Positions 2,589 to 29,740 of a stretch of 32,099 nt of DNA are shown here, piece after piece (within the stretch, counting starts at the first letter, position 1; each line of letters begins with the position of its first letter). The stretch comes from Thermoplasmata archaeon (lineage in GTDB: Archaea > Thermoplasmatota > Thermoplasmata > Lutacidiplasmatales > UBA184). A program made the translations under genes and the position numbers. The notes beneath the pieces were generated by a model. That model saw only the letters and a list, made by a program, of their open reading frames with translations, was not told where the DNA came from and searched no databases. The stretch is from the NCBI GenBank assembly GCA_021809545.1, contig JAKAYL010000017.1:1-32099 (forward strand), in the 5' to 3' direction.

Positions 2589-3110
2589 TCAAGTGCCGAG
2601 GTCCGTCCAAGCCGGGCTTGGAGGCAGCCCCAGGCTCTTTGCCACATTCGGTTTCAGGGGATACCGGAAGTTGGGGTGGGTCACTATGGCCACCACCTGA
2701 TTTGGTTTCAGGTTGGTGAACCGAAACCACTGCCCGTCAAACTGAGTTCCCGTGTTATTCGTCGATGGAATAAAGACCGAACTTCCCCCCCAAAGTGTCT
2801 TCATCATAGGAGGTCTGATGGACTGCCACGGCACCACGCGGTCAGATCGAAAATGATACCGAAAGACTACTGCGTCATCTGCCAAACCAATTACGTATGG
2901 GTCCGTAGAGATCACGTAAAGTATCAAGCCAAGCAGGAAGAGGTCGATAACAGCTATAGCGGGCATCATACTTCTTATCGGTGTCAATGGCAAATTGGCA
3001 ATCCCATATAGGTCAACAAGTGCAATTATTACTACGCCACAAGAAATATATATTTGAGAGCTGTTCAAGCCATTTGCTCTAATCCAACGGATTGTTTCTT
3101 CGTTCGCCAT
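2589..3110 (-). CDS. Small membrane protein, tandem copy A
   Basis: 173 residues from ATG 3108-3110. Two membrane segments lie in the N-terminal half (about residues 20-40 and 45-67), followed by a beta-rich soluble domain containing GLADDAVVFRYHFRSDRVVP and ending in a NLKPNQVVAIVTHPNFRYPL segment. The layout (paired helices, then a 'GL.D.aV.........vpW..I' strand) is reminiscent of bacterial PH-like membrane proteins of the YdbT/DUF304 type, but that is inference. It is a tandem duplicate of the gene at 3152-3676; the two align without gaps at a constant offset of 563 bp. A TATA-like box about 24 nt upstream of the ATG suggests its own leaderless promoter. Function unknown. Confidence 0.75.
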   Translation of the reverse strand: MANEETIRWIRANGLNSSQIYISCGVVIIALVDLYGIANLPLTPIRSMMPAIAVIDLFLLGLILYVISTDPYVIGLADDAVVFRYHFRSDRVVPWQSIRPPMMKTLWGGSSVFIPSTNNTGTQFDGQWFRFTNLKPNQVVAIVTHPNFRYPLKPNVAKSLGLPPSPAWTDLGT

Positions 3111-3280
3111 GGTAGTGTATCCTTAACACTGATATTTCGGCCATTTCCACATCAGGTGTTAGGGTCCGTCCAAGTCGGGCTTGGAGGCAGCCCCAGACTC
3201 TTTGCCACATTCGGTTTCAGCGGATACCGGAAGTTGGGGTGGGTCACTATGGCCACCACCTGATTTGGCTTCAGGTTGGT
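2601..3280. repeat. Imperfect tandem duplication, 563-bp offset
   Basis: Three blocks of high nucleotide identity recur at exactly 563 bp: 2601-2717 with 3164-3280, 2834-2886 with 3397-3449 (one visible mismatch), and about 2965-3000 with 3528-3563. DNA between the blocks is clearly more diverged. The duplication covers the two paralogous membrane-protein genes. The constant offset shows no indels since duplication. Confidence 0.85.
3131..3139 (-). promoter_or_regulatory. Candidate TATA box for gene 2589-3110
   Basis: On the minus strand this reads CGAAATATC, centred about 25 nt upstream of ATG 3110. That spacing would place transcription start at or next to the start codon (leaderless). No experimental support. 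Confidence 0.4.
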
Positions 3281-3676
3281 GAGTCGGAACCATTGCCCGT
3301 CAATCACTGTCCCGCTGCTATTTGGCGAGGGTATGAAAACCGAGCTGAATCCCCACAATACCATCATGGCAGGAGGCATAATTGATTGCCAGGATACCAC
3401 GCGGTCAGACCGAAAATGATACCGAAAGACTACTGCGTCATCTGCCAACCCGACAATATATGGGTCTGTGGAAACAAGATAGAGGAACACTGCAAGGCCG
3501 AAAACGTCTAAGACCAGCAAACCTGGTATCATACTTCTTATCGGTGTCAATGGCAAGTTCGCGATGACATACAAGTCCGTAAAGGCAGTGGCGAGAATCC
3601 CTCCAATGACACAGAATTGTGATATGCTCAACCCGGACGGCGGAATCCAAGTAACTACTTTTCTCTCGGGCACCAT
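3152..3676 (-). CDS. Small membrane protein, tandem copy B
   Basis: 174 residues from ATG 3674-3676, paralogous to its neighbour at 2589-3110. It has the same two N-terminal membrane segments and the same C-terminal soluble domain (GLADDAVVFRYHFRSDRVVS, then NLKPNQVVAIVTHPNFRYPL). The last 40 or so residues are almost identical between the copies while the N-terminal membrane part has diverged, a pattern that fits recent duplication with patchy gene conversion. Its start is 11 nt after the stop of the 3688-4188 gene, so it is probably co-transcribed with it. Function unknown; a PH-like membrane-associated domain is a structural guess. Confidence 0.75.
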   Translation of the reverse strand: MVPERKVVTWIPPSGLSISQFCVIGGILATAFTDLYVIANLPLTPIRSMIPGLLVLDVFGLAVFLYLVSTDPYIVGLADDAVVFRYHFRSDRVVSWQSIMPPAMMVLWGFSSVFIPSPNSSGTVIDGQWFRLTNLKPNQVVAIVTHPNFRYPLKPNVAKSLGLPPSPTWTDPNT

Positions 3677-8790: not shown

Positions 8791-9306
8791 GTGTTGGACA
8801 ACCGGACACGACAGCGGATCGCCGGGTTCATCGGTTCCCACCCGGGTTCGAGTGCTCGAGCCATCCAACGCGGACTGAACCTGGGCTGGGGTGAGACCTC
8901 GTACCATCTTCAGGAGATGGTCAAGGGCGGGACGATCCTGAAGCACTCTTCCGCCCACCGTGACTACTACTTCTCCTCGGATGTGACCCCCGCGGACCGG
9001 GCAACGCTATCGGCGATGCAGAGTCCCATGGAGCGGCGGATCCTGGTCGAGCTTTCCCAGGGAAAGGAGGTGTCCTTTTCCGAACTCCTGTCCCGCATCC
9101 CAGGTGGGAGGTCTACGGTCGCCTTCCACCTCCGCTACCTGATCGTCATAGGTCAGGTCGCCGTACTTGATCCCCCGGGGGAAAGGCGATACCGGGCGCA
9201 GCAACCCGAGCGGGTCTTGCGCCTCTACCGGAACTTCCGGGACTCCTTCGGGGACCGCATGCGGGACGAGTTCACTTCTATCTGGGGCGCACTGGTGCAC
9301 GACTGA
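8791..9306 (+). CDS. Tandem winged-helix transcriptional regulator
   Basis: 171 residues from GTG 8791. Two helix-turn-helix units of the archaeal winged-helix type are visible. The first (about residues 1-60: RQRIAGFIGSHPGSSARAIQ, then GETSYHLQEMVKGGTI) and the second (about 80-140: ERRILVELSQGKEVSFSELL, then RSTVAFHLRYLIVIGQVAVL) each show the 'xxxxHLxxLxxxGxV' recognition helix and wing typical of ArsR/MarR-like archaeal regulators. The C-terminal 30 residues are a helical tail. Such double-wHTH proteins are common in Thermoplasmata and Methanomicrobia. It is coupled to the small membrane protein upstream. Its 3' end overlaps the convergent DUF929 gene by 29 bp. Its target may include the palindrome at 8419-8439 (inference). 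Confidence 0.85.
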   Translation: MLDNRTRQRIAGFIGSHPGSSARAIQRGLNLGWGETSYHLQEMVKGGTILKHSSAHRDYYFSSDVTPADRATLSAMQSPMERRILVELSQGKEVSFSELLSRIPGGRSTVAFHLRYLIVIGQVAVLDPPGERRYRAQQPERVLRLYRNFRDSFGDRMRDEFTSIWGALVHD

Positions 9307-11089
9307 GCTCGTACGTAGGAGCGAGCCAACGTGCCTCGGTCACCGGTCGGGATCTGATATTGGAGAGTTCCGGGTTGACGGGACGCCGGCGGACCCGGAG
9401 GAGGACGACACCCAGGGCGATACTCCCGAGGGCGACCAGCCCCACGATCGCCCATTCGGCCTCACCCGGCCCCAAGGCAGGGCCGCCACCCCCGCCCAAA
9501 CTTCCCCCGGGGGGGTGCAAGGTGAACACGACCCATGGGTCGTAGGCTAGTGAGGAATATTCCCCTCCGTTACCGGAGAAGGTGAGTGTCATCATAGCGG
9601 TGTGGGCCCCATAGAAGGTGGCAGCGTCCGCGGAGACCCGTAGCGGTCCCGAGTATCCACCCGAAGCGTTGGCGCTGGGACCCATCACTAGCTGCGAGAG
9701 CGTGGCATTGTTTGAGTTCCACACCTGGGAGAGCGTCTGGAGCGAGTTGTTGAAACTGAGGTGGGCTCCTCCGGCTGCGATGGTGTCGAGGGCCAAGCCC
9801 AGCTCGTCCCCGGAGTGCATCCAGGGCCACCCAGAGAGACCCACGTCGAACTTGATCCGGGTGTCGTTGCCGTTCACATCGAACAGGTGGAAGGTGACGT
9901 TCATGGTGACAGTGCCGATCGAGTTGTTGGCGGGGATTACGCTGTTGTTGGTGCGGTTGCCGTACATGTCGTTCGGGAGCCACTTTCCCGTCGCGGTGCT
10001 CACGTTGCTCACCCATTGCGTGCTGAGATTGACCTCATTGCCAGAATACGAGATCTGGGTGCTCTCCGGAACTGGGACAATGAGGTTGGCGTACGCCACG
10101 ACGTCCCCGGAGGGAGTGAGTTCCGCGGCCCCCGGGACAAAGAAGGAAAAGTTGTATTGTTCGGACAGATTGACCGAGTTCTCATCGTACACCAGTTCGA
10201 ACACCGGTTGGTCGCCACCGAATGCGAGGGTTACGTTCCCGCATTGGATCGGCGCTGTCCCGCGGCACGCGGACGCGGGAGGAGTGGACGCAGGGGAAGT
10301 GATCTCAGCCGCCAAGCCCAGGACCGCTGCTTGATCTGCCCCGAAGGTCGGGGGTGGGACGGAGGCTCTCTCGTCGGCGACCACGATGTAGGCCTCCAAG
10401 TAGAGTTGTGCCTGATGGATAGCGTCGTACACCGTGGAGTTCAGCGAGGGATGCTGGGTGATGTTGTAGACCTGAGCGGGGTTCAGTCCAGAGAGGTACT
10501 GGGGACCCACCAGACTCCCGAGACGCAGGAAGACGCCTCCCACGACGAAGAAGGGGATCCCCCCGTTGGTGTAGTTTGAGACGTACGATTGCTCTTGCGC
10601 CGTCAAGGGAGGGGGGGTGCTTGCTCCCTCTTTGACGTCGAGCGAAAGATAGTTGCTGGCAGTCTGAACGCCCGACAGGTTCACCCCCGGTGTGCCGGGA
10701 TATAGTTCCGTGGTGTTGGACGAGGTGTAGCTCGTGCCGGTGACCGTGCCGGTCGCGTTCAAGGCCAAGAGCAGCGGCCAAGAGGAAGAATCACAGTACG
10801 GGCAGGCGAGGGTGCCATAGAAGAAGAGCACCGGGAGTCCTCCTACGCCCCATATACTGCTACTTGGGGGGAGCCCCTCCCATCCGCCCGGTTCCGTCTG
10901 GAGACCCGCCGGGTGGACCGACACGTCTCCTTGAGCTGGCGAGATGGCCGGGACAGGCGAGAACGTACCCGGCAGGACGGCGCCTGCAGCCCCGCCGATG
11001 AGAACCACGAGGGAGATCCACACGAGCAGGAAGGAGTGCCTTCCTCTATGGGGTCTTATTCGCCAAGACAGACGGGTACGATCTGACAT
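9278..11089 (-). CDS. Secreted DUF929-type thioredoxin-like surface protein
   Basis: 603 residues from ATG 11087-11089. Residues 19-41 form a signal or anchor helix. A domain with LPVLFFYGTLACPYC (CxxC at Cys96 and Cys99), a Ser/Thr-rich 'SSNTTELYPGTPG' stretch, NYLSLDVKE, and a 'GGIPFF' cis-proline-like turn at about 176-181 matches what is known of DUF929, a thioredoxin-like family. A long beta-rich ectodomain of about 300 residues with many N-x-S/T sequons follows, then a Gly/Pro linker, one membrane helix (about residues 546-568) and a basic cytosolic tail. I infer a cell-surface protein, possibly with thiol-redox activity outside the membrane. Its gene end overlaps the convergent regulator by 29 bp. 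It is larger than typical DUF929 proteins because of the added ectodomain. Confidence 0.8.
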   Translation of the reverse strand: MSDRTRLSWRIRPHRGRHSFLLVWISLVVLIGGAAGAVLPGTFSPVPAISPAQGDVSVHPAGLQTEPGGWEGLPPSSSIWGVGGLPVLFFYGTLACPYCDSSSWPLLLALNATGTVTGTSYTSSNTTELYPGTPGVNLSGVQTASNYLSLDVKEGASTPPPLTAQEQSYVSNYTNGGIPFFVVGGVFLRLGSLVGPQYLSGLNPAQVYNITQHPSLNSTVYDAIHQAQLYLEAYIVVADERASVPPPTFGADQAAVLGLAAEITSPASTPPASACRGTAPIQCGNVTLAFGGDQPVFELVYDENSVNLSEQYNFSFFVPGAAELTPSGDVVAYANLIVPVPESTQISYSGNEVNLSTQWVSNVSTATGKWLPNDMYGNRTNNSVIPANNSIGTVTMNVTFHLFDVNGNDTRIKFDVGLSGWPWMHSGDELGLALDTIAAGGAHLSFNNSLQTLSQVWNSNNATLSQLVMGPSANASGGYSGPLRVSADAATFYGAHTAMMTLTFSGNGGEYSSLAYDPWVVFTLHPPGGSLGGGGGPALGPGEAEWAIVGLVALGSIALGVVLLRVRRRPVNPELSNIRSRPVTEARWLAPTYELSRAPVRPR

Positions 11090-25957: not shown

Positions 25958-26030
25958 TGCCGGCGACGGGATTTGAACCCGTGTCTCCGGATCCACAGTC
26001 CGGAAGTCTGAACCGCTAGCCCACACCGGC
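25958..26030 (-). tRNA. tRNA-His (GTG anticodon), A73, no encoded G-1
   Basis: A 73-base tRNA read on the minus strand from 26030 to 25958. The acceptor stem GCCGGTG pairs with CGCCGGC (one G.T pair). The anticodon stem CCGGA/TCCGG encloses the loop CTGTGGA, giving anticodon GTG for histidine. The T-arm is ACGGG-TTCAAAT-CCCGT. The D-arm is weaker, with a C-A mismatch. CCA is not encoded. The base before the acceptor stem is C, so G-1 is not in the gene, and the discriminator (position 73, at 25958) is A. Most archaeal and bacterial tRNA-His have C73 paired with G-1. A73 without G-1 is the state known from Alphaproteobacteria. The gene starts 18 nt after the stop of the histidine ammonia-lyase gene, in the same orientation. 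Confidence 0.93.
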
Positions 26031-26048
26031 GTTGCGTTCCATCCCCCA

Positions 26049-27869
26049 CTATGTGCGTGTCGCCAGTAACGCAGTCCTAAGAACCTTTCCGGACGTCACC
26101 AGGTTCGCTGAGGAAGCGATGTGGGGCCATAGGAACGCATCCTCAGAGAGGAGAGGGATGGCGGGAAGAGCGTGGGTGGCTTCGCCGGATCGGACGAGTT
26201 CCCTCACCGCTCGCGCCGAAGGACTCAGGTCCTGCAGCTCTTCCTTTGTCGGTCGAGCAGGCGGGGCGTTTGGACCCGGGTGATGAAGTTGCGCGAGGCG
26301 CAGCTCAAGGGCTTGCAGGGCAACCATCAGTTCTATCGCAAGAATGTTCGTGACGTTGGTCACGACACGGCGGGCATGGCGCGCCCCAATGGGGGCCATG
26401 GAGACATAATCCTCAGCGTTGGAAGAGGTGGGGATCGAATCGACCGAGGATGGATGAGCGAGGACCTTGTTCTCGCTGACCAGGGCGGCGGCCGTGTACT
26501 GGGTGATCATGAACCCGGAGTTCAACCCGCCATCCACCGGCGCCAAGTCTCCCGGAAGACCACGATTGTGGTTGGAGTCCAGCAACATCTGGATTCGCCG
26601 CTCGCTGATCCCTCCCAGGCCCGCAAGCGCCGTCTTGAGGTAGTCCACGACCACGGATATCGGCTGTCCATGAAAATTGCCGCCAGAGTAGGCGTCGAAG
26701 TGGCAGACCTTGGGATCCTCGGGATAGTCCAGGGGATCCCCCACGAAGAACAACGGATTGTCGGTGACCGCGTTGATCTCTTCCTCGAGAACCTCCCACA
26801 CGTGATCGATGGCCGTCCCCGTGGCCCCATGCACTTGGGGTGCGCATCGGAGCGAGTACGCATCCTGAGGCGAGCTCGTTTCCTTGTTCACGAGCTTGCT
26901 GTGCTTCAGGAATGCGTGCATCTGGGCCGCAGCGGCGATCTGTCCCGCGTGGCGACGCACCTGCTGGACCTTGCCATCAAAGGCACGGGTGAATCCCATC
27001 ATCGCCTGCAGTGTCAACGATGCGGACAGGTTTGCGACCCCCCATAGGTTGTCGGCATCGTAGACCGCCAGGGCGCCCAGCGACGCCGACAGCGCCGTTC
27101 CGTTGGTGAGGGCCAGCCCTTCCTTCGCCTCGAGCGCCGCGATAGGACGGAGACCAGCCTTCTCCAGAGCAACGCGTCCCGAGTCAGGTCGCGGTCGCAT
27201 CTCCAAACGCGGGTCCCACCCGGACGAGCCGTGCTTGGGAGCGGTAGGGGTTAGTTCGGGAGAATCGTCGTGCCACGCAAACCCCTCTCCAATGAGTACG
27301 AGGGCGAGATGGGCGAGCGGAGCAAGATCTCCGGACGCTCCCACCGAACCCTGTTCAGGGATCCATGGATGAACGTGTGAGTTCAGCATTTGAACGAGCA
27401 GCTCGACGATCTCCGGTCGCACCGCGGAACGTCCCTCGACGAACGCCCGCACCCGGAGGAGCATCATTCCGCGGACAACCTCCGTAGGAAGCGGGCTCCC
27501 CACCCCGACGGAGTGGCTCCGAACGATGTTCTCTTGCATTCGACGCACTTCGTCAGCGTCCTTCAAGGGAGACGACTTGAAGTGCCCGAACCCGGTGAGC
27601 ACCCCGTAGATGAGGTCGCGGGGGTCGACCTTCCCGGTTTGGGCTTTCTTGGCCAGGGCATCACGTAGGGCATCGTCCACATACTTGCGGCTCCGTTCGC
27701 AACGGTCTCGCCAATCTCCCGCAAGTTCCACTCGCGCGAAATGACCCTTGCCATCTCCGCGCGCGACGCCTACAAGTTCGGAGATCGTCAGCCGACCTCC
27801 AGGGGAGATGTGGACCGTCAGGTTCGGGTCGGCGCTGTGCCCGAAACGAGGACGCAAGCCTTCAGTCAC
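26049..27869 (-). CDS. hutH: Histidine ammonia-lyase
   Basis: 606 residues from GTG 27867-27869, chosen because the family N-terminus (VHISPGGRLTISELVGVAR) follows soon after and GAGGGGAC lies just upstream; the frame is open to 27971. The enzyme removes ammonia from histidine to give urocanate. The MIO cofactor triad Ala-Ser-Gly is present in GSVGASGDLAPLAHLAL (about 178-180), YGVLTGFGH carries the catalytic Tyr (about 88), and KEGLALTNGTALS, the DNPLFF block and VDSIPTSSNAEDYVSM are conserved. The last reads NAEDYVSM where most enzymes have NQEDHVSM; the substrate-contacting Glu is kept. An extra 30-residue stretch (about 200-230) and a longer C-terminus make it longer than the usual 500-520. 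It lies between hisS and tRNA-His. A related aminomutase or other ammonia-lyase is possible but less likely. Confidence 0.88.
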   Translation of the reverse strand: MTEGLRPRFGHSADPNLTVHISPGGRLTISELVGVARGDGKGHFARVELAGDWRDRCERSRKYVDDALRDALAKKAQTGKVDPRDLIYGVLTGFGHFKSSPLKDADEVRRMQENIVRSHSVGVGSPLPTEVVRGMMLLRVRAFVEGRSAVRPEIVELLVQMLNSHVHPWIPEQGSVGASGDLAPLAHLALVLIGEGFAWHDDSPELTPTAPKHGSSGWDPRLEMRPRPDSGRVALEKAGLRPIAALEAKEGLALTNGTALSASLGALAVYDADNLWGVANLSASLTLQAMMGFTRAFDGKVQQVRRHAGQIAAAAQMHAFLKHSKLVNKETSSPQDAYSLRCAPQVHGATGTAIDHVWEVLEEEINAVTDNPLFFVGDPLDYPEDPKVCHFDAYSGGNFHGQPISVVVDYLKTALAGLGGISERRIQMLLDSNHNRGLPGDLAPVDGGLNSGFMITQYTAAALVSENKVLAHPSSVDSIPTSSNAEDYVSMAPIGARHARRVVTNVTNILAIELMVALQALELRLAQLHHPGPNAPPARPTKEELQDLSPSARAVRELVRSGEATHALPAIPLLSEDAFLWPHIASSANLVTSGKVLRTALLATRT

Positions 27870-28192
27870 GTCCGTCCCCTCGGGAAAACACCGTGCGACC
27901 GTTCCGACCCTCGAAGGTCGGAGACACGAATGGATCAACCAGGTTGGACGAACCCCATTCCTTCGGTTCAACCTGCCAAAGTTTCACAGAAGTGTCCATG
28001 ACCGTTGGCCCTCGGGGCCAGCGACTATCTCACAGATATTTGACCTTGGGGGGCTTCGAAGTGGGTTGCACATTTGCCTCAATACGACGGCTCTTCCGTT
28101 CGATGAGATGTTGTCGAAGGCTTCCCGTGTCTCCTCTAGAACCGCCTCCCAACCTGTCGCCCGTTCTCGGGCTTCGGAAGAGACGCCTTCGT
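27870..28192. other. Gap between hisS and hutH
   Basis: No separate gene is convincing. The hutH frame stays open to 27971, so part of this gap could encode an N-terminal extension, but that stretch does not resemble the family. A promoter for hutH may lie here; I see no clear TATA box. Confidence 0.35.
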
Positions 28193-29740
28193 CTATGGCT
28201 GTGAAGTTCTGGCCGGGTCGTAACGGGCCAGTATGTCCTTCACCGTCTCGACCAGTTTCGCTTCCGGAACCGTGACCTGGCCCGGGAGCGCCTCGAGCCA
28301 ACTCTTCCGGTTCGAGTGCTCTGCGCTCAACTCCTTTCCCCGGCGAAGATCCTTGATCGAAACCGTCCCCGCGGCTTTTTCTCGGTCTCCGCGCAGTACT
28401 GCCACGACCTTTCCCGTGTCGTCAGCATACCTCATCTGGCCCGCCAGGCCATCGCCCCCCATGTAGACCTCGGTGTTGATTCCTGCGGAACGGAGGCTGG
28501 CGGCGAGTGTGTGGTATTCCGACAAATTCTTGGAATTCAAGGCGATCACGATCACGGGGGCCGTGGAGCTCCCCACCGTAACGCGGCCAAGGAGCTTGAG
28601 GGCCGACAAGAGCCGATCGACCCCCACGGACGCTCCCGTTGCCGGGATCCGTTGTCCGGTGAACCTCTCCACGAGGTAGTCGTACCGTCCCCCTCCGAAC
28701 ACGCTGCCGAACCGACGGCGAACCCCGTCGCTATCCGTAATCTCCATGGTCAGTGTGGCTTCGAAGATCGGGCCTGTGTAGTAGGCCAGTCCGCGCACCA
28801 CGGTCGTGTCGAAGGTAACCCGGTCCTCGTCAACCCCCGCTTTGCGCAGGAATTCGTCGATCTCGACCATCTCCCGCACCCCTTCTTCCCCCGACTTCGA
28901 CCCCGAGAGCATCTTCTCGAGGGAACGGCAGTAGTCCAGACGTGACGTGGAGGAGACCTCCAGGAAGGAACGCACCTGCTCCACCTGCGTTTCGTACAGC
29001 CCCGCCCCGGGAGTGAAGCTACCACTGGGGTCTTTGCGCCCAATGCCCAAGAGGTCCACAACCCCGTCTAACCCTATCCGGTCCAACTTGTCGATGGCTC
29101 TCAGGACCGTCAGGGCCTTTTCCGACCACGCGGTCTCCTGTCCTTTCGCCCCGATCCCGATCTTCTCTATGAGGGCCCCCAGCACCTTGCGGTTGTTCGC
29201 CCGGACGATGTACTGTCCGCGATTGATTCCCAGGGCCTCCAGGGTCTCCGACATGATGCAACAGGCTTCCGCATCCGCCGCAACCCCGGGAACACCAATG
29301 CTGTCGAAGTCCATTTGATAGAACTCTTGGAATCTTCCGGGTTCAAGCGAGGCCTCTCTCCGGTATACGGGACCTACTTGGTATCGTCGGTAGGGCAAGG
29401 GGAAGTGGTGCCCCATGGCAACCACGCGGGAGAGGGGGGCCGTCAGGTCGTACCGTAGGGAAACCCATTCTTCCCTGTCCTTCCCTTCCTCATCTTTTCC
29501 GGTGTCTTCTTTCCAAGAGAAGATGCCCGCCGCCGGAGTGTTGCTCTCGGGTAAGAACTTCCCCAAGACGTCCACGAACTCGATGGCGGGTGTTTCCAGC
29601 GGGACGAACCCGTACCTTTCATACACCTGACGGATCGTTTCGAACATCCCTCGGCGCGCTTGTACTTCGTCCGAGTACGTGTCACGGAAGCCAGGCACGA
29701 GACGGGCCACTGGGCGTCTGGGTTCATCCGTGGGGTTCAT
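28193..29740 (-). CDS. hisS: Histidyl-tRNA synthetase, alphaproteobacterial-type
   Basis: 515 residues from ATG 29738-29740. Class II synthetase that charges tRNA-His. Motif 2 is RRYQVGPVYRRE (118-129), followed by PGRFQEFYQMDFDSIG (134-149); the histidine motif is VRGLAYYTGPIFEATL (315-330); motif 3 is ATGASVGVDRLLSAL (367-381); an anticodon-binding domain covers about 393-475. The 'GRFxEFYQxDxDxxG', 'IVRANNRKVL' and 'YTGPxFEAxL' blocks are those I know from the alphaproteobacterial HisRS group, unlike the bacterial/archaeal 'RGLDYYxxTVFE' type, which suggests horizontal acquisition. It is longer than the usual 420-500, with a short insert near residues 78-90. It is the first gene of a hisS-hutH-tRNA-His run. 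Confidence 0.92.
   Translation of the reverse strand: MNPTDEPRRPVARLVPGFRDTYSDEVQARRGMFETIRQVYERYGFVPLETPAIEFVDVLGKFLPESNTPAAGIFSWKEDTGKDEEGKDREEWVSLRYDLTAPLSRVVAMGHHFPLPYRRYQVGPVYRREASLEPGRFQEFYQMDFDSIGVPGVAADAEACCIMSETLEALGINRGQYIVRANNRKVLGALIEKIGIGAKGQETAWSEKALTVLRAIDKLDRIGLDGVVDLLGIGRKDPSGSFTPGAGLYETQVEQVRSFLEVSSTSRLDYCRSLEKMLSGSKSGEEGVREMVEIDEFLRKAGVDEDRVTFDTTVVRGLAYYTGPIFEATLTMEITDSDGVRRRFGSVFGGGRYDYLVERFTGQRIPATGASVGVDRLLSALKLLGRVTVGSSTAPVIVIALNSKNLSEYHTLAASLRSAGINTEVYMGGDGLAGQMRYADDTGKVVAVLRGDREKAAGTVSIKDLRRGKELSAEHSNRKSWLEALPGQVTVPEAKLVETVKDILARYDPARTSQP

What the first reader, a model, noticed from the sequence alone, without database searches (positions are those of the whole stretch)
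25958..29740. Archaeal tRNA-His with A73 and no G-1 beside an alphaproteobacterial-type HisRS
Seen: the tRNA-His gene has A at the discriminator position and C, not G, before the acceptor stem. The hisS product has blocks (GRFQEFYQMDFDSIG, ANNRKVL, YYTGPIFEATL) that I associate with alphaproteobacterial HisRS. Known: most tRNA-His use G-1:C73 as identity elements, and Alphaproteobacteria are the recognised exception, with A73, no G-1 and a divergent HisRS. Inference: this archaeon acquired such a HisRS and its own tRNA, which otherwise looks archaeal, adapted to it. A change of tRNA identity following synthetase transfer, with both parties in one cluster, would be a notable case in Archaea.
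Basis: partly seen in the sequence, partly recalled or inferred. Interest (0 to 1): 0.88.

Follow-up and report, generated by a model that had tools for sequence, protein, structure and literature searches.

The report
Archaeon with a swapped histidine-tRNA code
One archaeon has replaced its own histidine-charging enzyme with a type otherwise found here in some bacteria, and its histidine tRNA lacks the two marks (an extra G and a C) that its relatives use to identify it, a rewiring previously reported for alphaproteobacteria and a few protists but, as far as I could find, not for archaea.

Summary
The only tRNA-His(GUG) found in this 98.98%-complete Thermoplasmatota-type genome has A73 and C at -1. 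The only HisRS lies about 2.2 kb upstream on the same strand. That HisRS is 45-49% identical to HisRS of G-1-less alphaproteobacteria and of some Planctomycetota. It falls in one clade with them (100/100), shares their 11-12-residue insert, and is only 25-30% identical to HisRS of its archaeal relatives (AU p=2e-8 against grouping with them). The contig is not a misbin: neighbouring genes are 62-85% identical and syntenic with congeners. Congeners keep ordinary archaeal HisRS (motif-2 Gln) and a G-1:C73 tRNA-His; 48 of 48 relatives read in full have G-1:C73, and no native tRNA-His was found in this genome. No Thg1 was found. The enzyme lacks the C73-reading Gln and, alone of 47 HisRS aligned, has Gln at the G-1-contacting Arg.

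Corrections: the HisRS is a third branch beside alphas and planctomycetes, not nested in alphas. The tRNA body is archaeal but differs from its family's tRNA (71-77% against >=93% among them), so co-acquisition is as likely as adaptation. A survey of 390 phylum genomes found one further A73 case (G311), with an unrelated divergent HisRS. Charging specificity is inferred, not measured.

The parts
25958..26030 (-). tRNA-His(GUG), 73 nt, intronless, no encoded CCA; A73 at 25958, G1:C72
   Evidence: only tRNA-His found in the genome
26031..26031 (-). position -1 of tRNA-His: C, not G
26049..27971 (-). hutH, histidine ammonia-lyase (PF00221; ASGDL MIO motif); stop codon 18 nt before the tRNA; real start probably downstream of the ORF start
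   Evidence: membership in the functional unit is not established
28193..29740 (-). hisS, histidyl-tRNA synthetase, 515 aa, of the clade found in G-1-less alphaproteobacteria and Planctomycetota
29321..29362 (-). HisRS motif-2 loop RREASLEPGRFQEF: no Gln at the C73 contact, Gln138 at the E. coli Arg123 (G-1 contact) position
28997..29050 (-). insert region LGIGRKDPSGSFTPGAGL shared only with the alphaproteobacterial and planctomycete HisRS in the alignment
28772..28801 (-). HisA catalytic motif VVRGLAYYTG, intact

Best explanation
This archaeon has lost the ordinary archaeal HisRS and the ordinary G-1:C73 tRNA-His of its genus. It now makes His-tRNA with a foreign HisRS/tRNA-His pair that does not use G-1 or C73. 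The enzyme belongs to the clade otherwise found here in G-1-less alphaproteobacteria and in some Planctomycetota. Its motif-2 loop has lost the residues that read C73 (Gln) and touch G-1 (Arg), and its partner tRNA carries A73 with no encoded G-1 and, in the absence of Thg1, no known means of adding one. Recognition most likely rests on the GUG anticodon plus A73, as shown for Caulobacter. Shown from sequence: foreign HisRS, absence of the native pair from the assembly, A73/C-1, absence of Thg1 (PF04446), and the motif-2 changes. Inferred: that the enzyme charges this tRNA without G-1, which nucleotides it reads, and that enzyme and tRNA arrived or changed together.
For: HisRS 46-48% to RRCH alphas over ~97% and 44-47% to Planctomycetota, against 25-30% to native archaeal HisRS. 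Clade support 100/100; AU rejects grouping with native archaeal HisRS, p=2.4e-8. Shared 11-12-residue insert. Motif 2 lacks the C73-reading Gln and alone of 47 sequences has Gln instead of Arg at the R123 position. Only one HisRS and one tRNA-His in the 98.98%-complete genome. No PF04446 hit in the genome; the control rang in Methanosarcina acetivorans. 48/48 relatives read in full are G-1:C73, and the other A73 genome, G311, also lacks the Gln. Contig authentic: galU, epimerase, ugd, second galU, glyA and a small ORF are 62-85% identical and in the same order in congeners. A tRNA-His with A73 lies just upstream of the same HisRS type in four of five planctomycete loci. GC3 of hisS 0.75 against 0.89-0.92 for galU, ugd and glyA.
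Against: Charging, the mature 5' end and RNase P cleavage were not measured. The assembly is a metagenome-derived draft in 83 contigs, so a native gene in the missing ~1% cannot be excluded. In Aeropyrum pernix C-1 and A-1 are tolerated and C73 is a weak element (PMC9976931), and Nanoarchaeum HisRS is indifferent to A73/C73 (PMC10100707), so altered bases alone need not mean an identity switch. The window tRNA has C72, not the U72 reported as a Caulobacter determinant. Two of the four planctomycete tRNAs happen to have G at -1. Only PF04446 was searched for Thg1.
Confidence: 0.82

Rival explanations
1. Co-acquisition: hisS and an already adapted tRNA-His came together as a block from another (unsampled) archaeon and displaced the native pair. 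The identity switch then happened in the donor lineage.
For: tRNA 71-77% to its own family's natives, which are >=93% alike, but 77-81% to intronless tRNA-His of other families of the class; AU against grouping with the family p=0.033; D-arm stem GGCT/GACT identical to family f3 tRNAs; no T-loop intron; linkage of hisS and tRNA here, in Planctomycetota and in G311.
Against: No archaeal donor with this HisRS was found among 293 phylum genomes; 73 nt carry little signal and the tRNA tree is poorly resolved; an archaeal tRNA beside a bacterial-clade enzyme still needs an earlier adaptation step.
Confidence: 0.45
2. Adaptation in place: a foreign hisS arrived alone and the genome's own tRNA-His lost G-1, C73 and its intron under the new enzyme.
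For: tRNA is archaeal in T-loop, anticodon loop ACTGTGGATCC and positions 1-5 GCCGG shared with congeners; less like planctomycete tRNA-His (59-68%).
Against: About a quarter of positions differ from otherwise nearly invariant family tRNAs, including stems not known to contact HisRS; positions U6/G67, G7/C66 and A49/U65 match the L079 planctomycete tRNA instead (comparison of sequences); the tRNA sits next to hutH and hisS.
Confidence: 0.35
3. Binning artefact: the hisS/tRNA contig belongs to another organism and the real native genes lie in assembly gaps.
For: MAG with 83 contigs; GC3 of hisS (0.75) and hutH (0.71) is lower than that of galU, ugd and glyA.
Against: Same 32-kb contig carries six genes syntenic and 62-85% identical to congeners; contamination 0.03%; both native hisS and native tRNA-His would have to be missing while 59 of 60 sampled family genomes show the native tRNA.
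Confidence: 0.03
4. Tolerance only: the HisRS reads mainly the anticodon and ignores -1/73, so A73 and C-1 are neutral drift rather than a new identity element.
For: A. pernix and N. equitans HisRS tolerate changes at -1 or 73 (PMC9976931, PMC10100707).
Against: 48/48 relatives keep G-1:C73; the only other A73 genome also has a HisRS lacking the Gln; relatives of this enzyme in alphas use A73 as a determinant (PMC9976931).
Confidence: 0.25

Closest known systems
RRCH-clade alphaproteobacterial HisRS/tRNA-His (Caulobacter crescentus system; Ardell and Andersson 2006; Wang et al. 2007; Yuan et al. 2011, cited through PMC9976931 and PMC3937112)
   Same: Same HisRS clade and insert, A73, no encoded G-1, no C73-reading Gln in motif 2, HisRS acquired by transfer.
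   Different: Host is an archaeon; tRNA body is archaeal with G1:C72 (Caulobacter uses U72); motif-2 loop is one residue longer and has lost the Arg123 equivalent, which the alphas keep; HisRS is a separate deep branch.
Planctomycetota HisRS with adjacent tRNA-His (loci L079-L083, this work)
   Same: Same HisRS clade; tRNA-His with A73 linked to hisS in four of five loci.
   Different: tRNA is bacterial in body with C1:G72, directly upstream of hisS; G at -1 in two of the four; Arg123 equivalent kept.
Trypanosoma brucei and Acanthamoeba castellanii G-1-less tRNA-His (PMC9976931)
   Same: A HisRS that works without G-1 and no guanylyltransferase gene.
   Different: Eukaryotic enzymes; not tested here for relationship.
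Nanoarchaeum equitans HisRS (PMC10100707)
   Same: An archaeal HisRS that is indifferent to A73 versus C73.
   Different: Keeps an encoded G-1 as major identity element and the Gln112 residue.

Membership tests
Histidyl-tRNA synthetase (HisRS) | Curated HisRS profile above cut-off, catalytic core and anticodon domain present | tested here: met
   TIGR00442 312 bits vs 286.75 cut-off; PF13393 and PF03129; HisA motif VVRGLAYYTG intact
Alphaproteobacterial (RRCH)/planctomycete-type HisRS clade | Groups with these HisRS to the exclusion of other bacterial, eukaryotic and archaeal HisRS | tested here: met
   100/100 clade; AU p=2.4e-8 against grouping with native archaeal
Alphaproteobacterial (RRCH)/planctomycete-type HisRS clade | 11-12-residue insert LGxGRKDxSGxFxxGxGL | tested here: met
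Alphaproteobacterial (RRCH) HisRS proper | Nested among alphaproteobacterial sequences | tested here: not met
   Window branches outside alphas + planctos (89/72) or unresolved
G-1-less tRNA-His system (Caulobacter type) | tRNA-His gene with A73 and no encoded G-1 | tested here: met
G-1-less tRNA-His system (Caulobacter type) | No C73-reading Gln in HisRS motif 2 | tested here: met
G-1-less tRNA-His system (Caulobacter type) | No post-transcriptional G-1 addition: Thg1 absent | tested here: met
   PF04446 absent from the genome; control rang in Methanosarcina acetivorans
G-1-less tRNA-His system (Caulobacter type) | U72 as determinant | tested here: not met
   C72 (G1:C72) in the window tRNA; determinant from PMC9976931
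G-1-less tRNA-His system (Caulobacter type) | Efficient charging of G-1-less A73 tRNA | not testable with these tools
   needs aminoacylation assay
Canonical archaeal tRNA-His/HisRS | Encoded G-1:C73 and motif-2 Gln | tested here: not met
   relatives meet the tRNA feature 48/48

The most novel reading that the evidence does not exclude
Linked hisS/tRNA-His pairs with the G-1-independent, A73 identity act as transferable identity modules that have crossed between bacteria and archaea and have displaced the canonical histidine code at least twice within one archaeal class (this genome and G311), each time with an unrelated HisRS that has lost the C73-reading Gln.
Probability: 0.3. Interest if true: 0.88.

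Novelty: new variant of a known kind. Interest (0 to 1): 0.77.

Why it matters
C73 was found in all 86 archaeal tRNA-His of one survey (PMC5029447) and is called universal in Bacteria and Archaea in a review (PMC6471195). The alphaproteobacterial change was argued to have arisen only once in bacteria and is used as a phylogenetic marker (PMC3937112). An archaeon with the same HisRS clade, plus Planctomycetota with it, shows that this trait travels. Together with a second independent archaeal A73 case it gives a comparative system for asking how an essential tRNA identity rule changes. Such pairs are also candidate orthogonal HisRS/tRNA-His pairs, as the E. coli pair is in Caulobacter (PMC3875453).

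Tried and rejected
Contamination or misbinning: rejected by synteny and 62-85% identity of neighbouring genes with congeners. Second hisS or hidden native tRNA-His: none found. Three of the genome's 34 tRNA hits are intron-containing Ser/Tyr/Leu genes by ARAGORN with introns allowed (the Ser call may be a misread anticodon); the four weakest hits, which got no locus, were not read. Thg1 rescue of G-1: no PF04446. A73 widespread in relatives: rejected. Of the pattern hits with non-C73 in 390 genomes, only G000 and G311 are real; G004, G034 and G399 read as intron-containing T-loops that shift the register, and G296, G330 and G342 as chance matches. tRNA remoulded from another tRNA of the same genome: best own-genome match is Arg/Cys with score 17.5 versus 32 for the congeners' tRNA-His. 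Search for the donor: the genome-contig scan with the single protein found only five Planctomycetota loci; Thermoplasmatota samples had none; other archaeal phyla could not be scanned. A first guess at alphaproteobacterial tRNA-His by blastn gave tRNA-Arg instead, so alpha tRNA-His features are cited from papers. Ardell and Andersson 2006 and Yuan et al. 2011 are not in the library and are cited through PMC9976931 and PMC3937112. Structure prediction was not run: it would not have tested specificity.
Full report
WHAT IS THERE. The window is a whole 32,099-base contig (C74) of a 1.96-Mb draft genome, 98.98% complete with 0.03% contamination. On the minus strand, in order, lie hisS (29740-28193), hutH (27971-26049) and tRNA-His(GUG) (26030-25958), the tRNA starting 18 nt after the hutH stop. 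The tRNA reads GCCGGTG TG GGCTAGCGGTTCAGACTT CCGGACTGTGGATCCGG AGAC ACGGGTTCAAATCCCGT CGCCGGC A: A73, G1:C72, no intron, no encoded CCA; the base at -1 is C. It is the only tRNA-His found in the genome and hisS is the only HisRS gene.

IS THE CONTIG REAL. glyA on this contig is 75-85% identical to glyA of congeners, and the block galU, epimerase, UDP-glucose dehydrogenase, second galU, glyA and a small ORF is syntenic with congeners G015 and G009 at 62-85% identity. So the odd pair lies in the archaeal chromosome and is not a stray bacterial contig. GC3 of hisS is 0.75 and of hutH 0.71, against 0.89-0.92 in galU, ugd and glyA, which fits later acquisition but is not proof, since the flanking 30783-31988 gene is also 0.75.

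WHAT RELATIVES HAVE. The four congeners and 56 further genomes of the family have a different HisRS, about 30-38% identical by local alignment and 25-30% over the full alignment. Their native tRNA-His, found in 59 of 60 family genomes and in all four congeners, was not found in this genome. Thirty of these tRNAs were read: all have G at -1, C at 73 and an intron in the T-loop. With 18 further tRNA-His from the phylum parsed in full, 48 of 48 are G-1:C73. A pattern search for any base but C at 73 in 390 genomes of the phylum gave only two true cases, this genome and G311. In the literature held, all 86 archaeal tRNA-His of one survey have C73 (PMC5029447), and a review calls C73 universal in Bacteria and Archaea (PMC6471195).

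THE ENZYME. Its best matches among annotated records are HisRS of Rhodobacterales and Rhizobiales (46-48% over about 97%); the next group is at 33%. A scan of genome contigs found the same type in five Planctomycetota loci (44-47%). A maximum-likelihood tree puts window, nine alphaproteobacterial and five planctomycete HisRS in one clade (100/100). Placing the window with native archaeal HisRS is rejected (AU p=2.4e-8); a wider tree agrees and leaves the window as a deep third branch. All members of the clade share an 11-12-residue insert (LGxGRKDxSGxFxxGxGL) absent from every other sequence shown. In motif 2, the native archaeal HisRS have the C73-reading Gln (EPQSGR and similar). The clade lacks it: window ASLEPGR, alphas KPGPGR, planctos IKPGKDR or similar. 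At the position of E. coli Arg123, described as the G-1 contact in PMC10100707, 46 of 47 aligned HisRS have Arg and the window alone has Gln (Gln138). The catalytic HisA motif is intact. No Thg1 (PF04446) was found in this genome or 30 family members, while the control rang in Methanosarcina acetivorans, so no G-1 is expected after RNase P.

HOW IT PROBABLY WORKS. From the characterised relative, Caulobacter (A73, U72 and anticodon as determinants, no G-1; PMC9976931), I infer that the window HisRS charges an A73, G-1-less tRNA-His through the anticodon and A73. This is inferred; no charging data exist. The tRNA has C72, so the set of determinants cannot be identical to Caulobacter's.

WHERE THE tRNA CAME FROM. 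Its T-loop, anticodon loop and first five acceptor bases are archaeal. It is 77-81% identical to intronless tRNA-His of other families of the class, 71-77% to its own family's (which are at least 93% alike), and 59-68% to the planctomycete ones. The D-stem GGCT/GACT matches family f3 exactly. A 74-column tRNA tree is poorly resolved, but grouping with the family is marginally rejected (p=0.033). In that tree the window tRNA falls between the planctomycete and the other archaeal tRNAs. I therefore put co-acquisition of an already paired hisS/tRNA-His slightly ahead of adaptation of the native tRNA. Either way the switch took place on a tRNA that is mostly archaeal.

A SECOND CASE. G311, of the same class but another family, has a tRNA-His with A73 and T at -1, read across a 55-nt contig overlap. 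It ends about 24 nt before a divergent hisS whose motif 2 is RYENDPKKGRYREF: no Gln, one extra residue. That HisRS is not in the alpha/plancto clade, lies outside the native archaeal group in both trees (on a long branch), and differs from its congener G430, which keeps EPQSGR. Its best solved relative is the Thermoplasma HisRS 1wu7 (organism from my own knowledge). In both A73 genomes the Gln is missing and hisS is linked to the tRNA; every native archaeal HisRS examined has the Gln.

COMPARISON WITH WHAT IS KNOWN. The alphaproteobacterial switch is known and was argued to have arisen once in bacteria after transfer of a eukaryote-like HisRS (PMC3937112). New here, as far as the library shows, are an archaeal instance in the same HisRS clade, with loss of the Arg123 equivalent; the presence of this HisRS and A73 tRNA-His side by side in Planctomycetota; and a second, unrelated archaeal A73 case. 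Archaeal precedents for relaxed recognition exist (A. pernix, N. equitans; PMC9976931, PMC10100707), so tolerance rather than a new identity rule remains possible.

LIMITS. One draft genome; no biochemistry; the donor was not found; other archaeal phyla were not scanned; alphaproteobacterial tRNA-His features are from papers, not read here; four weak tRNA hits in the genome were not read.

Noticed in passing
G311 contigs C12 end and C9 start (L184, L185:1-1451): Second archaeal tRNA-His with A73 and T at -1, about 24 nt upstream of a divergent hisS lacking the motif-2 Gln (RYENDPKKGRYREF); its congeners have an ordinary HisRS.
   Followed up: partly
L079:4850-4924, L080:3197-3270, L081:3382-3454, L082:4856-4928: Planctomycetota carry tRNA-His with A73 and C1:G72 directly upstream of an alphaproteobacterial-like hisS; -1 is C, T, G, G. 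I found no published mention.
   Followed up: partly
L117-L146 (30 genomes of the window's family): Native tRNA-His of this archaeal family carries an intron in the T-loop after TTCAAA, so ARAGORN misses it; the window tRNA has none.
   Followed up: partly
26049-27971: hutH between hisS and tRNA-His, 18 nt before the tRNA; closer (44-48%) to HAL of other genera of the family than to its congeners' (33-39%).
   Followed up: partly
2589-3676: Two tandem, similar small membrane-protein ORFs (173 and 174 aa) that share long identical stretches, looking like a recent duplication.
   Followed up: no
9278-11089: Secreted/surface-type protein of 603 aa with a DUF929 match and a C-terminal membrane anchor.
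   Followed up: no
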